Origin: Lysinibacillus louembei
Lineage (GTDB): Bacteria > Bacillota > Bacilli > Bacillales_A > Planococcaceae
NCBI RefSeq assembly: GCF_033880585.1
Contig: NZ_CP137624.1
Location: forward strand, 2,701,501-2,765,500
Reading direction: 5' to 3'
Length of the DNA stretch: 64,000 nt
The notes below the pieces were generated by a model, which saw only the letters and a program-made list of their open reading frames with translations, had not been told where the DNA came from and searched no databases. How positions within the stretch are numbered: position 1 is the stretch's first letter; the number at the start of each line of letters is the position of its first letter. Positions 7,531-42,619 of the stretch are shown here, one piece after another. The position numbers and the translations under genes are program-made.

Positions 7531-7930
7531 GACATCAAGAAATTCGAGTAATCGCTGCATCTTATAAGATGTAGAGGAAAGTCCATGCTCACACGGCTCT
7601 GAGATGACCGTAGTGTTCGTGCTTACCGAAAAAATAAGGTAAGGCAAGCAGATGCTTGACGGCGAAAGGAATACCTAAGTCTTATGATATGGTAGAAACT
7701 TTCTGAAGGTGCCACAGTGACGGAGCTTGCTTGGAAACAAGCAAGGTGGAACGAGGTAAACCCCGCGAGTGAGAAACCCAAATTATGGTAGGGGCACTCT
7801 CCAAAAGGAATTGAACGGCTGGAGGGACAGGCAAACGCCTGTAGATAGATGATTACTACCTGAGCGTACGAGGCGATTCGCTGTTTGAGTACACAGGAAC
7901 AAAACATGGCTTACTGAAGACTATTGATGC
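7531..7930 (+). ncRNA. rnpB: RNase P RNA, Bacillus (B) type
   Basis: The ~400-nt catalytic RNA of ribonuclease P matures tRNA 5' ends. Conserved elements appear in order: GTAATCGCTGCA, GAGGAAAGTCCATGCTC, GTAGTGTTCGTGC, GTGCCACAGTGACG, GAGAAACCCAAATT, GGTAGGGGCA, GTAGATAGATGATT and ACAAAACATGGCTTAC. The terminal P1 helix pairs CATCAA near 7533 with TTGATG near 7924. Ends are set by that helix and by the promoter. A T run (7932-7938) follows P1 directly and may serve in 3'-end formation. Confidence 0.97.
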
Positions 7931-37745: not shown

Positions 37746-38288
37746 AACAGTAACTGTTATATATTTTTTATTTTATATTCGTATTGTATTATAACAGAGT
37801 ATACGAGTCAACAGAATAATTAGAAAATTCGGTTATTTTATGTGTCAATTTTGTGACAAAGGAAAAGCCTGTCATTTGATGAGCTTTTGTGCACATATTA
37901 TATTTTGGGAATTTTAATCTCCTTTATTTGTTATATGGTTCAACTTATTAGTTGATTCCATCTGATTAAGGGGATGTTTCATCTAGCAGCATGTGCCGCT
38001 ATTACCAATTTCCTTCGATTGTTTAATGAGAACTACTACGAAGAAAATACGGTTGTTTTGTTGTCCGTATAAATGCTCCTTTTTATTAATGGTCATACTT
38101 CTTAGTCAATTTATTGTGACTGTGCAATATACAACTTAACTAGAATAATTTCTTTGAAGTAATATGGTTAGTGATGTTCATAATATGAAAATAGATTCTA
38201 TTGAGAAAAGTGCAAGAGTTTTTTTGTTTGTCAAATGGCTAGATTTTTATTATTATTGCTGTATAATTAGATGCAATTATAAATATTA
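37746..38288. other. 540-bp intergenic region upstream of rib operon
   Basis: I find no convincing gene. It holds the promoter region of the small zinc-ribbon gene at its left end, a 5-bp inverted repeat TGTCA/TGACA (37843-37858), and TATAAT (38262-38267) about 21 bp before the first FMN aptamer. No good -35 stands 17 bp from that box; TTGTCA at 38228 is 28 bp away. The rib transcript probably starts near 38274. Confidence 0.5.
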
Positions 38289-38475
38289 CCTTCGGGGTCG
38301 GGTGTAAGTCCCAATCGGCGGTAAAGCCCGCGAGCTTTTTTAAAGCAGGATTCGGTGAAATTCCGAAGCCGACAGTAATAGTCTGGATGAGAGAAGGTAG
38401 GCAAAAAACTAGCCAAAACGCTAGTTTATTTGATGACGCCTTTTTTCAGACCTCACAAAAAATGTGGGGTTTTTT
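38289..38475 (+). ncRNA. FMN riboswitch 1 of 4, with terminator
   Basis: The aptamer spans 38289-38398. RFN-element landmarks are present in order: CCTTCGGGGTCGGGTG, CCCAATCGGCGGTAAAGCCC, GGATTCGGTGAAATTCCG, AAGCCGACAGTAATAGTC and GGATGAGAGAAGG, closed by the P1 pairing CCTTC/GAAGG. Downstream are a hairpin AAACTAG/CTAGTTT (38407-38427) followed by GCC and T6, and then a second hairpin CCTCACA/TGTGGGG (38451-38469) with T6. FMN binding should favour termination. Confidence 0.95.
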
Positions 38476-38489
38476 AATTGAATAACATG

Positions 38490-38677
38490 CCTTCGGGGTC
38501 GGGTGCAAGTCCCAATCGGCGGTAAAGCCCGCGAGCTTTTTTAAAGCAGGATTCGGTGAAATTCCGAAGCCGACAGTAATAGTCTGGATGAGAGAAGGTA
38601 GGCAAAAAACTAGCCCAAACGCTAGTTTATTTGATGATGCCTTTTTTCAGACCCCACAAAAAAATGTGGGGTTTTTT
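38490..38677 (+). ncRNA. FMN riboswitch 2 of 4, with terminator
   Basis: The aptamer (38490-38599) is nearly identical to copy 1; it shares the same GCTTTTTTAAAGC side hairpin. The expression platform is the same, with CCCCACA/TGTGGGG as the second hairpin (about 38652-38671) and T6 after it. The start lies 201 bp after the start of copy 1. Confidence 0.95.
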
Positions 38678-38691
38678 AATTGAATAACATG

Positions 38692-38877
38692 CCTTCGGGG
38701 TCGGGTGCAAGTCCCAATCGGCGGTAAAGCCCGCGAGCTTTTTAAGCAGGATTCGGTGAAATTCCGAAGCCGACAGTAATAGTCTGGATGAGAGAAGGTA
38801 GGCAAAAAACTAGCCCAAACGCTAGTTTATTTGATGATGCCTTTTTTCAGACCCCACAAAAAAATGTGGGGTTTTTT
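38692..38877 (+). ncRNA. FMN riboswitch 3 of 4, with terminator
   Basis: The aptamer (38692-38799) has a shortened side hairpin (GCTTTTTAAGC, two bases fewer than copies 1 and 2). The platform is identical to that of copy 2 (CCCCACA/TGTGGGG, then T6). It starts 202 bp after copy 2. Confidence 0.95.
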
Positions 38878-38891
38878 AATTGAATAGCATT

Positions 38892-39085
38892 CCTTCGGGG
38901 TCGGGTGTAAGTCCCAATCGGCGGTAAAGCCCGCGAGCTTTTTAAGCAGGATTCGGTGAAATTCCGAAGCCGACAGTAATAGTCTGGATGAGAGAAGGAT
39001 TAGGCAAAAAACTAGCAAAAGTGCTGGTTTATTTAGCGATGCCTTCTCCGTAAAAGCCCCTTTTTTAGGAGGCTTTTTTAATTTA
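38892..39085 (+). ncRNA. FMN riboswitch 4 of 4, ribD-proximal, with distinct platform
   Basis: The aptamer (38892-38999) has the same short side hairpin as copy 3. Its platform is different: GAGAAGG at the 3' end of P1 can pair with CCTTCTC (39042-39048) as an antiterminator. The terminator AAAAGCCCC...GGAGGCTTTTTT lies at about 39052-39080. The ribD ribosome site AAAAGGAGGTGG follows at 39086-39097. It starts 200 bp after copy 3. Confidence 0.95.
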
Positions 39086-39100
39086 AAAGGAGGTGGCTGT

Positions 39101-40126
39101 ATGAATGACGAGCAAGCAATGCAATTCGCTTTGAATTTAGCGAAATCAGGAAGTAATCAAACTTCTCCCAATCCGCTAGTTGGGTGTGTCATTACAAATA
39201 ATCAGGAGGTTGTAGGCTTTGGCGCTCACCTTAAATCAGGTGAGGCACATGCGGAGATTAATGCATTAAAAATCGCGGGTGAGAAAGCTAAAGGGGCGAA
39301 TGTTTATGTGACGCTGGAGCCCTGTAGCCATGTTGGACGAACTGGTCCCTGTGTTGAGGCGCTTATAAAAGCACAGGTAGCCCATGTATTTATTGCAACG
39401 CTTGACCCAAATCCACTTATAGCTGGAAGTGGTGCTCGAAGGCTAGAGGAGGCAGGCATTACAGTAAGTATTGGATTATGTGAAGATGGGGCAAAAGCGA
39501 TTAATGAAGCATTTTTCTACTACATTGTACATCGTTTACCTTATGTTACGTTGAAGCAAGCCATTTCGATAGACGGTAAAATTAACGCCGAGAAAGGGCA
39601 GCGAACGGCAATTACAGGTAAGGAGGTTCAGAAGGATGTTCATTATGCTCGCTCCATACATGATGCTATTTTGGTTGGTTCAAACACTGTTTGTATTGAC
39701 AACCCAAGCTTAACAAATCGGCTTAGCTCTTCAAATAAACAACCAATTCGAGTTGTTATGGACCGAGATGGAAAGGTTCCGAGTGCAGCAAAAGTCTTTA
39801 ACGATAAAATGGCTCAAACTTGGCTTTTTACATCAAAGGCTCGGAACTTGTCAGGCGTTCGTACCTTTGTAATAGAGGATTGTTCCTTGCGAAATATTTT
39901 AAGGACGCTAGCGGATGAAGGCATTATGACATTATACGTTGAGGCAGGCAGCCAAATGGCGGATGTCTTTTTACAACAACGATTTGTACAAAAAATGATT
40001 ATATATATTGCGCCGAAGCTATTAGGTTCTGGGGCACTTTCGATGGCAACATTGCAGGAGGAATTTATTTTTACTGACGTTGAAAAAATAGGTGAGGCCA
40101 TTAAATTAACAATGACAATGAAATGA
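39101..40126 (+). CDS. ribD: Bifunctional riboflavin deaminase/reductase RibD
   Basis: A 341-residue cytosolic enzyme catalysing the second and third steps of riboflavin synthesis. The N-terminal cytidine-deaminase domain carries HAE (about 50-52) and the zinc-binding EPCSHVGRTGPC (about 74-85). The C-terminal pyrimidine reductase domain (about 145-341) begins VTLKQAISIDGKI and contains VVMDRDGKVP. First gene of the rib operon, with a strong ribosome site and behind four FMN riboswitches. Called ribG in B. subtilis. Confidence 0.96.
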   Translation: MNDEQAMQFALNLAKSGSNQTSPNPLVGCVITNNQEVVGFGAHLKSGEAHAEINALKIAGEKAKGANVYVTLEPCSHVGRTGPCVEALIKAQVAHVFIATLDPNPLIAGSGARRLEEAGITVSIGLCEDGAKAINEAFFYYIVHRLPYVTLKQAISIDGKINAEKGQRTAITGKEVQKDVHYARSIHDAILVGSNTVCIDNPSLTNRLSSSNKQPIRVVMDRDGKVPSAAKVFNDKMAQTWLFTSKARNLSGVRTFVIEDCSLRNILRTLADEGIMTLYVEAGSQMADVFLQQRFVQKMIIYIAPKLLGSGALSMATLQEEFIFTDVEKIGEAIKLTMTMK

Positions 40127-40135
40127 GGTGAGCAT

Positions 40136-40768
40136 TTGTTTACAGGGATTATTGAGGAGCTAGGCACGATTAAGCAAATGACAAAAGGGCAAGAATCAAT
40201 TGTTTTTACGATTGGTGCTCGAAAAATAATGCAAGATTTGAAGGTCGGCGATAGCATCGCAGTGAATGGTGTATGTTTAACTGTCACAAGCTTCACTAGC
40301 ACGAACTTCACAGCTGATGTTATGCCTGAGACGATACGTGCAACATCACTTGCACAATTACAAGTAGGAGCCTCTGTAAATTTAGAGCGTGCTATGATTG
40401 CCAATGGTCGATTTGGAGGTCATTTTGTATCAGGGCATATTGATGAAGTAGGGGTTATTTTACGTAAACGTTCATTTGCAAATGCGGTTTATTTTGATAT
40501 AAAAGTTTCTCATGAAGCAAGTGCTTTATGTATACCGCGTGGGTCAATCGCTATTGATGGAATTAGCTTAACAATTTTTGATTTACAAAAAGAGATTGTT
40601 ACGGTTTCAATTATTCCGCATACATTTGGGGAGACAACGCTTGGCTTTAAACGTGAAGGTGATACTGTCAATATCGAAACAGATTTGCTAGGCAAGTATA
40701 TTGCTAAACAATTAAAAGTAAGATCAAATACATTAACAGAAGACTTTTTACGACAACATGGATTTTAA
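40136..40768 (+). CDS. ribE: Riboflavin synthase alpha subunit
   Basis: A 210-residue enzyme starting at TTG with GAGGTGAG upstream. It has two homologous lumazine-binding barrels: [13 protein letters not shown] at residue 1 and the second beginning near residue 98 ([12 protein letters not shown]). GVCLTVTSF and GISLTIFDL are the paired substrate-site motifs. It dismutates two 6,7-dimethyl-8-ribityllumazine molecules to riboflavin. It lies 9 bp after ribD. Bacillus literature also calls it ribB. Confidence 0.96.
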
Positions 40769-40780
40769 AGGTGGGCTAAA

Positions 40781-41968
40781 ATGTTTAACACAATAGAAGA
40801 AGCGATTGCTGACTTAAAACAAGGGAAAATAGTTATCGTTGTTGATGATGAAAATCGTGAAAATGAAGGTGATTTTGTTGTATTAGCTGAATATGTAACG
40901 CCTGAAGTCATTAATTTTATGGCGACATATGGGAAAGGGCTGATTTGTACTCCAATTAGCTCACAAATTGCACATTCACTTAGCTTAGAGCCAATGGTTC
41001 AATTTAATACAGACAATCATCAAACAGCATTTACAGTAAGTATTGATTATATGGATACTACTACGGGAATTAGTGCATTTCAAAGAGCATTGACGATTGA
41101 AAAAATGCTAGATGATAATGTGCAGCCACAGCATTTTCGCCGACCAGGTCATGTTTTTCCGTTAATTGCAAAGGAAAATGGCGTTCTTGTAAGACCTGGG
41201 CATACAGAGGCTACAGTTGATTTAGCGATGCTTTGTGGAAGCAAGCAAGCAGGGGTTATTTGTGAAATTATGAATGAGGATGGTACGATGGCTCGATTAC
41301 CTCAATTGAAAGAAATAGCTGAAAAATTTAATATGAAGCTCATTACAATCGAAAGCTTAATCCGATACCGTCTTGAAAAAGAGAAGGTCGTCTCTCGTGA
41401 AGCGAAAATTCAGCTACCAACACATTATGGTGAATTTATAATGATTGGTTATACGAATTTCATCGACTCTAAAGAGCATGTTGCAATTGTTAAAGGAAAT
41501 CTACAACAAGCAGAAGCACCACTAATTCGCATTCACTCTGAGTGTTTAACAGGTGATATTTTTAGCTCGAAACGCTGTGATTGTGGAGCACAGTTACAAG
41601 CGGCACTTGCTAAAATTGAGCAGGAAGGAGAAGGGGCAATTCTTTATATGCGGCAGGAAGGACGAGGAATTGGCTTATTAAATAAGTTAAAAGCATATGA
41701 ATTGCAGGAGCAAGGCTACGATACAGTAGAGGCGAATGAAATGCTTGGCTTTCCTAGCGAGCTACGCGACTACAGTTTATGCGCACAGATGCTGCGAGAT
41801 TTAGGAGTTACACATATCCGTTTAATGACGAATAACCCAGATAAGGTAGCCCAGCTTGAACGGTACGATATAACTGTTGTGGAACGTGTACCTCTTGTTG
41901 CTGGTTTAGTAGAAGAAAATACTCATTATATGAATACAAAAAAAGAAAAAATGGCTCATTTATTATAG
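40781..41968 (+). CDS. ribBA: Bifunctional DHBP synthase / GTP cyclohydrolase II
   Basis: A 395-residue protein that supplies both precursors of the pathway. The N-terminal half has [11 protein letters not shown] (about 22-32) and RPGHVFPL of 3,4-dihydroxybutanone 4-phosphate synthase. The C-terminal half has HSECLTGD, the zinc cysteines in [12 protein letters not shown] (about 262-273) and [13 protein letters not shown] of GTP cyclohydrolase II. It lies 12 bp after ribE. Confidence 0.97.
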
Positions 41969-41979
41969 AGGAGGAATTA

Positions 41980-42447
41980 ATGATGGTAAAAACATTTGAA
42001 GCGCAGCTAGTAGGTACAGGATTAAAAATAGGTATTGTTGTTGGACGTTTTAACGAGTTTATTAATGATAAATTATTAGCAGGTGCGATTGACGGTTTAA
42101 AGCGTCATGGCGTAGAGGAAAATGCCATTGACATTGCTTGGGTGCCAGGAGCTTTTGAAGTACCTTTTATAGCAAAAAAGATGGCAGAATCACAAAAATA
42201 TGATGCTGTTATTGGACTTGGTACAGTTATTCGTGGCGCAACAACGCACTATGATTACGTATGTAACGAATCAGCAAAAGGAATTGCCAATGTAGGCTTA
42301 CAAACAGGAGTGCCAACCATTTTTGGAATCGTTACAACTGAAACAATTGAACAAGCAATTGAACGAGCAGGAACGAAAGCAGGGAATAAAGGTTACGATG
42401 CTGCTGTAGCTGCAATAGAAATGGCAAATTTAACAAAAATGTTTTAA
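41980..42447 (+). CDS. ribH: 6,7-dimethyl-8-ribityllumazine synthase
   Basis: A 155-residue enzyme with VVGRFNEFI (about 20-28), [22 protein letters not shown] (about 83-96) and [16 protein letters not shown]. It joins the products of RibD and RibBA and usually assembles into icosahedral capsids. GAGGAGG precedes the paired ATGATG start. It is the last gene of the operon. Confidence 0.97.
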
Positions 42448-42499
42448 GATATTTTAATTTTCTATTGGAATTTAACTGTTAGAGGTAAATGTGTGAAGA

Positions 42500-42529
42500 G
42501 GAGTGATAACAAATCAATATTATCACTCC
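42500..42529 (+). terminator. Hairpin after ribH, possible terminator
   Basis: GGAGTGATAA (42500-42509) pairs perfectly with TTATCACTCC (42520-42529). No T run follows, so termination is uncertain. Confidence 0.4.
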
Positions 42530-42619
42530 CTACTCTATTAAAAAATAAAAGTGTCAAATGAAAACGAACTGTTTTCCCTCGATTGCTTTCAAAATTATCC
42601 TATCAGATTTGGTAGAAAG

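What the first reader, a model, noticed from the sequence alone, without database searches (positions are those of the whole stretch)
38289..39085. Four tandem FMN riboswitches before the riboflavin operon
Four complete RFN aptamers start at 38289, 38490, 38692 and 38892 (period 200-202 bp). Each is followed by at least one terminator hairpin with a T run. Riboflavin operons normally carry one. Tandem riboswitches are known for other ligands (for example glycine and TPP), but four in-series copies of one FMN element with a terminator each would be very unusual. In series, read-through probabilities multiply, so the array should give a steeper response and far lower leak than a single switch. 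It could also buffer the operon against mutations in any one aptamer.
Basis: partly seen in the sequence, partly recalled or inferred. Interest (0 to 1): 0.95.

Follow-up and report, generated by a model that had tools for sequence, protein, structure and literature searches.

The report
Four vitamin-sensing RNA switches in series
This bacterium appears to control its vitamin B2 genes through four very similar RNA switches placed one after another, each with its own predicted stop signal, and some relatives carry the same kind of switch array with the same genes at other places in their chromosomes.

Summary
Rfam finds four full FMN aptamers (RF00050, 108.0-113.4 bits, cut-off 66.2) at 38284-39003, period 200-202, before ribD-ribE-ribBA-ribH in a one-contig genome; a terminator-like hairpin follows each. 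FMN doublets and triplets are already published (PMC9481103, PMC12452182), so the kind is known; I found no report of four. Relatives bear it out: four copies in G001 and Bacillus ndiopicus (one cut by an N gap), five in G056. Arrays have the form A(n)Z: the ribD-proximal Z platform is conserved across species (79-93%) and differs from the A platforms (54-68%), which are 95-100% alike within G000 and G001 but 66-84% between genera. Z may also hide the ribD ribosome site. Trees indicate that the array-bearing operon crossed genera; it sits elsewhere in G001 and B. ndiopicus and was not found in a same-species assembly. Best reading: FMN-controlled terminators in series, carried as a unit with the operon. 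A simple model gives far lower leak but little extra steepness (Hill 1.3). FMN response is untested.

The parts
38240..38267 (+). promoter-like site (TAGATT, 16 nt, TATAAT) upstream of the first aptamer
   Evidence: 9 of 12 consensus matches; the TAGATT and TGCTGTATAATTA blocks are invariant in 5 of 5 array loci. The scan picked an overlapping site instead (38228-38256) and expects 2.5 sites by chance, so this is a prediction.
38284..38402 (+). FMN aptamer 1 (A-type unit)
   Evidence: RF00050, 113.4 bits
38449..38475 (+). terminator-like hairpin of unit 1 with T run
38485..38603 (+). FMN aptamer 2 (A-type unit)
   Evidence: RF00050, 108.9 bits
38650..38677 (+). terminator-like hairpin of unit 2 with T run
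38687..38803 (+). FMN aptamer 3 (A-type unit)
   Evidence: RF00050, 108.0 bits; its platform is identical to that of unit 2
38850..38877 (+). terminator-like hairpin of unit 3 with T run
38887..39003 (+). FMN aptamer 4 (Z-type, ribD-proximal unit)
   Evidence: RF00050, 110.6 bits
39041..39049 (+). GCCTTCTCC: can pair with the P1 3' strand of aptamer 4 or with the ribD Shine-Dalgarno sequence
   Evidence: folding; inference
39052..39080 (+). terminator-like hairpin of unit 4, of another sequence than those of units 1-3
   Evidence: a hairpin at this place in 5 of 5 Z platforms
39089..39093 (+). GGAGG, Shine-Dalgarno sequence of ribD
   Evidence: read from sequence; predicted unpaired probability 0.52 with the P1 strand free, 0.06 with it locked
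39101..40126 (+). ribD
   Evidence: TIGR00326, 353.1 bits
40136..40768 (+). ribE, riboflavin synthase
   Evidence: TIGR00187, 246.1 bits
40781..41968 (+). ribBA
   Evidence: NF006803, 615.1 bits
41980..42447 (+). ribH, lumazine synthase
   Evidence: TIGR00114, 198.1 bits
37887..42555 (.). segment without a match at this site in same-species genome G002 (where about 217 other bases stand between the two flanks); G003 has a like site

Best explanation
The leader is a chain of four complete FMN riboswitches of the form A-A-A-Z that control one riboflavin operon from one promoter. Each unit senses FMN on its own; with FMN bound the aptamer closes and the hairpin that follows stops transcription, so the operon is made only if the polymerase passes all four units (inferred from anatomy; FMN response not shown). 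The last unit is of another type: besides a terminator-like hairpin it holds a stretch that can pair either with the aptamer's P1 3' strand or with the ribD Shine-Dalgarno site, so it may add translational repression (folding only). Copy number probably changes by gain or loss of A units, while Z is conserved across species. The operon travels with its array: the trees place it across two genera, and within the genus it sits at different sites.
For: Four aptamers far over the Rfam cut-off; operon genes. Terminator-like hairpin after 19 of 19 array units and 68 of 72 units in 26 loci (the G004 copy with the N gap and the second G042 set were not given to the script). Promoter-like block invariant in 5 of 5 array loci, and no site of 9 or more of 12 matches inside the five arrays. 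Z-Z platforms 79-93%; A-Z of one genome 60-65%; A-A 95-100% in G000, G001 and among G056 A2-A4; A-A between genera 66-84%. The first hairpin of A platforms keeps 3 pairs through changes on both sides. SD less accessible with the P1 strand locked in 5 of 5 Z units. Rib-protein tree joins G000, G001, G004, G056, G042 at 100/100 and rejects the four g8 genomes as one clade (AU p 5.9e-8), while Dxs groups both genera and rejects the array clade (AU p 1.8e-5). The site is without the operon in G001-G004; RibD and RibBA gave no match in the assemblies of G002 and G003.
Against: No transcription or binding data. The antiterminator partner is not fixed: aptamer-terminator complementarity beats shuffled arms only weakly (mean z -0.83; 3 of 19 array units and 7 of 49 others in the best 5%). 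The terminator pairs of A units show no two-sided changes in the consensus fold and neither does any pair of the Z platforms (0 of 27). In G001 the SD is predicted hidden in both states (0.09 and 0.01). Homogenisation of A units is not general: the two intact G004 A platforms are 85% alike, and G056 A1 is closer to G042 A1 and A2 (92 and 96%) than to G056 A2-A4 (86%). 8-of-12 promoter-like sites recur inside units, so internal starts are not excluded. G002 and G003 are drafts of 80 and 310 contigs.
Confidence: 0.78

Rival explanations
1. Only the ribD-proximal (Z) unit, or one of them, does the regulation; the A units are passive copies made by replication slippage or unequal crossing-over and not yet lost.
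For: A units are nearly identical within some genomes, as recent duplications would be; copy number differs between genomes.
Against: Every aptamer hit of the array loci is far over the cut-off (98.9-113.4 bits), every array unit examined has a terminator-like hairpin (19 of 19), and four copies occur in each of the 3 genus genomes in which the operon was found.
Confidence: 0.12
2. Each unit has its own start site, so the units act in parallel (several short RNAs) rather than in series.
For: Weak 8-of-12 promoter-like sites recur inside units, for example at one place in each unit of G000.
Against: In G000 they lie in the aptamer core, which is conserved for other reasons, and they are weaker than the site before unit 1, which is invariant over 5 loci; the scan lists no site inside the array.
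Confidence: 0.06
3. The aptamers have diverged in affinity or ligand (FMN, FAD, riboflavin analogues), making a graded or multi-input device.
For: None direct; a few P1 and loop bases differ between copies.
Against: The alignment to the FMN consensus is nearly the same for all four copies and the aptamers of G000 are 93-98% alike.
Confidence: 0.04

Closest known systems
Tandem FMN riboswitches, doublets and triplets (Sherlock et al. 2022, PMC9481103; Morales and Merino 2025, PMC12452182)
   Same: Several complete FMN switches before one operon, in the second paper before rib genes in Bacillota; predicted pseudo-cooperative.
   Different: In the parts I read they give 31 doublets and 4 triplets, and FMN-FMN 87% / FMN-FMN-FMN 13% for ribE, ribB and ribH; here four, and five in G056, with two unit types.
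Triple tandem c-di-GMP riboswitch of Bacillus thuringiensis (PMC4759541, outline with abstract read)
   Same: Several complete same-class switches in series before one operon; the abstract reports more stringent and digital control than double or single.
   Different: Another ligand, three units, experimentally tested.
SAM-II/SAM-V bi-mechanism tandem riboswitch (as described in PMC9481103, section 11)
   Same: Transcription termination upstream followed by translation control next to the gene.
   Different: Here one aptamer class throughout, and the translational step is a folding prediction only.

Membership tests
FMN riboswitch aptamer (RF00050) | Score above the curated cut-off over the whole model | tested here: met
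   4 of 4 copies, 108.0-113.4 bits against 66.2, positions 1-138
FMN riboswitch aptamer (RF00050) | Lies upstream of riboflavin synthesis or transport genes | tested here: met
   ribD, ribE, ribBA, ribH follow
FMN riboswitch aptamer (RF00050) | Binds FMN and changes expression | not testable with these tools
   needs in-line probing or reporter fusions
Tandem (pseudo-cooperative) riboswitches | Two or more units, each aptamer plus expression platform, before one operon | tested here: met
   four aptamers 82-83 nt apart with a terminator-like hairpin in each gap; PMC12452182 section 17 uses a terminator after the first aptamer as its criterion
Tandem (pseudo-cooperative) riboswitches | Units act independently on one transcript | not testable with these tools
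   a promoter-like site before unit 1 is conserved; not an experiment
Riboswitch with adjacent aptamers and one shared platform (glycine type) | Aptamers closer than 20 nt, one platform after the last (PMC12452182 section 17) | tested here: not met
   gaps of 82-83 nt with hairpins
Bi-mechanism tandem riboswitch | Last unit controls translation initiation | tested here: inconclusive
   predicted SD accessibility falls in 5 of 5 Z units when the P1 strand is locked, but no two-sided pair changes support the pairing

The most novel reading that the evidence does not exclude
The riboflavin operon of this clade is a self-contained, horizontally moving cassette that brings its own multi-stage FMN governor, A(n)Z: a tunable run of transcription attenuators (n = 2 to 4 seen), kept alike by recombination within genomes, ended by one conserved unit that combines termination with hiding of the ribosome site. 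The number of A units would be set by unequal recombination and selection and would fix how tightly a newly arrived operon is shut in a new genome.
Probability: 0.4. Interest if true: 0.72.

Novelty: new variant of a known kind. Interest (0 to 1): 0.52.

Why it matters
It is a natural dosage series (three, four and five copies of one switch before one operon) in which the predicted payoff of serial riboswitches, leak against steepness, can be measured. It also shows a regulatory RNA array that appears to be transferred with its operon and whose upstream units are nearly identical within some genomes, which bears on why tandem riboswitches arise and persist.

Tried and rejected
Antiterminator: I looked for complementarity of the terminator 5' arm to the aptamer. 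Two partners came up most, J1-2 CGGGGUC and the P1 3' strand; against shuffled arms the signal is weak, so I name no single antiterminator. My first idea that the hairpin before the main terminator is itself a terminator was dropped, because G056 units 2-4 lack its T run.

Operon duplication in G042 (3 plus 2 aptamers 5 kb apart): rejected as a probable scaffolding artefact, because a run of N of about 2.6 kb lies between the copies and their RibD translations are the same; only its first array was used. G004 looked like three copies in the search; the sequence shows a fourth, cut by Ns.

Plasmid records: 13 of 72,556 have a match and none covers 80% of the array. Viral contigs: one exact tandem pattern, no match. 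The one genome-contig scan, with RibD, gave only three loci. In one search the Shine-Dalgarno position taken for G000 was wrong (it fell in the terminator); one search replaces that value. The order search returned the same 261 genomes as the family search. The literature searches listed no title or abstract on four or more FMN switches; only the held library was searched, most listed papers were not opened, and supplementary tables were not read.

Family genomes with two or three hits were placed only in part. Whether the operon in G000 was newly acquired or moved within the genome was not decided.

Full report
Observation. The window lies in a one-contig genome of 3,960,254 bases. Rfam's FMN model gives four full-length hits at 38284-38402, 38485-38603, 38687-38803 and 38887-39003 with 113.4, 108.9, 108.0 and 110.6 bits, against a cut-off of 66.2. 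Copies repeat every 200-202 bases and differ from one another. They stand before ribD (39101-40126), ribE, ribBA and ribH, all named by curated models above their cut-offs. The only other FMN hit of the genome stands alone before a membrane protein with weak, sub-cut-off likeness to ECF transporter S components; that it is RibU is inference.

Unit anatomy. Each aptamer is followed by a hairpin and then by a terminator-like hairpin with a T run. The strict scan lists the latter for units 1-3 and a looser search for all four. Over 26 loci, 68 of 72 units have one, including 19 of 19 array units of G000, G001, G004, G056 and G042; the four without are G065 units 1 and 2, G150 unit 1 and G026 unit 1. 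Left out before that count: the G004 copy cut by Ns and the second G042 set. In the consensus of 14 A-type platforms 3 of 11 pairs, all in the first hairpin, are kept through changes on both sides; the terminator shows none. A TATAAT with TAGATT 16 nt upstream stands before unit 1, and these blocks are invariant in 5 of 5 array loci. Weaker 8-of-12 sites also occur inside units.

Copy number. In the genus, G001 has four copies, G004 has four (one cut by an N gap), and G002 and G003 have only one FMN hit each, of the lone kind. In the family, 260 of 261 genomes have an FMN hit; five or more hits occur in 4 of 261 (G000, G001, G042, G056) and exactly four in 14 of 261. Placing the hits in 18 genomes, among them all 14 four-hit genomes, shows five in tandem in G056 and three in tandem in 11 genomes (G022, G029, G030, G065, G066, G129, G136, G138, G258, G259, G260) and in the first array of G042. 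Outside the family, none of the 359 genomes in the class sample of 398 has more than three hits. In the phylum sample, 3 of 288 genomes outside the class have four hits, arrangement not resolved. Runs over 40 genomes score only the best 7 to 11 candidates per genome.

Two unit types. In the five array genomes the ribD-proximal platform (Z) is 79-93% alike across species, 60-65% like the A platforms of its own genome and 54-68% like A platforms in general. A platforms are 95-100% alike in G000 and G001, 93% in G042, 85% in G004; in G056 A2-A4 are identical but A1 is 86% like them and 92-96% like the G042 A platforms. Between the two genera A platforms are 66-84% alike (all). So arrays are A3Z (G000, G001; G004 by inspection), A4Z (G056) and A2Z (G042).

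Z unit. GCCTTCTCC (39041-39049) can pair with GAGAAGG of the aptamer's P1 3' strand or with the ribD Shine-Dalgarno stretch. Locking the P1 strand, as FMN would, lowers the predicted unpaired probability of GGAGG from 0.52 to 0.06 in G000, 0.09 to 0.01 in G001, 0.45 to 0.00 in G004, 0.63 to 0.28 in G056 and 0.64 to 0.20 in G042. No shuffled control was run for this. No pair of the five Z platforms shows two-sided changes (0 of 27).

Mechanism. Shown: four aptamers, hairpins, conserved upstream promoter-like block, operon. Inferred: FMN binding stops transcription at each unit and read-through multiplies; Z adds translation control. The antiterminator is not settled: complementarity of terminator arms to the aptamer is only slightly better than shuffled (mean z -0.83; 3 of 19 and 7 of 49 in the best 5%). 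In an independent-switch model with read-through from 0.9 to 0.1, four units give 6,560-fold control against 9-fold for one, with effective Hill 1.27 and half-repression at 0.22 K, at the price of a lower maximum (0.66 against 0.90). The benefit would be mainly a tight shut-off.

Movement of the operon. A tree of RibE, part of RibBA and RibH (18 of 26 loci; 8 were left out for missing or short pieces) puts G000, G001, G004 (g1) with G056, G042 (g8) at 100/100 and rejects one g8 clade (AU p 5.9e-8); it does not reject g1 as one clade (p 0.30). Dxs of 27 genomes keeps g1 (100/100) and g8 (100/99) apart and rejects the array clade (AU p 1.8e-5). Rib and Dxs lie on the same contig in G056 and in G042, which speaks against contamination. 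The groups were named after I had seen identities, so the p-values are not blind, and one marker gene stands for the species tree. Within g1, the DNA that flanks the operon in G000 lies close together in G001-G004 without the operon; G001 and G004 carry it elsewhere, beside a large GTPase gene that looks dynamin-like (the name is by eye, one search gives only weak GTPase matches). At that second site G000, G002 and G003 show no rib sequence in the stretches taken. G002, of the same species, gave no match to RibD or RibBA, nor did G003; both are draft assemblies.

Known work. PMC9481103 (abstract and outline, section 11, first part of section 20, passages) counts 31 doublet and 4 triplet FMN switches and explains pseudo-cooperative control; its quadruplets are glycine aptamers. 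PMC12452182 (abstract and outline, section 17, passages) reports doublets and triplets of FMN before ribE, ribB and ribH in Bacillota. PMC4759541 (outline with abstract) tested a triple c-di-GMP switch. The searches listed no report of four or more FMN switches; most listed papers were not opened and no supplementary table was read, so such cases may be recorded there.

Verdict. A real, conserved, longer form of a known arrangement: new variant of a known kind, with added interest in its A(n)Z build and in the likely transfer of the operon with its array.

Noticed in passing
window 37887-42555; L066, L067: RibD and RibBA gave no match in the draft genomes G002 (same species) and G003, which keep one lone FMN switch; they may be riboflavin auxotrophs.
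   Followed up: partly
L071 10840-13575: Apparent duplicated rib operon in G042 spans a run of N of about 2.6 kb and is probably a scaffolding artefact.
   Followed up: yes
L072-L082 and others: In most other family loci examined, no RibD was found just after the FMN leader and ribE comes first; the array operons start with ribD.
   Followed up: partly
L070 5756-6837: Two ORFs that look like a split IS630-type transposase lie upstream of the five-copy array operon of G056 (by eye).
   Followed up: no
L008 1203-1377, L074 2830-2896: Bacillaceae-1 RNA (RF01690) matches, two of them on opposite strands near the lone FMN switch of G004.
   Followed up: no
window 7540-7918: RNase P RNA, bacterial class B, 341.3 bits.
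   Followed up: no
G627, G673, G711, G797 (phylum sample): One genus outside the class has three or four FMN matches per genome whose best E-values are weak (about 4e-15 to 2e-14); arrangement and ligand unknown.
   Followed up: no
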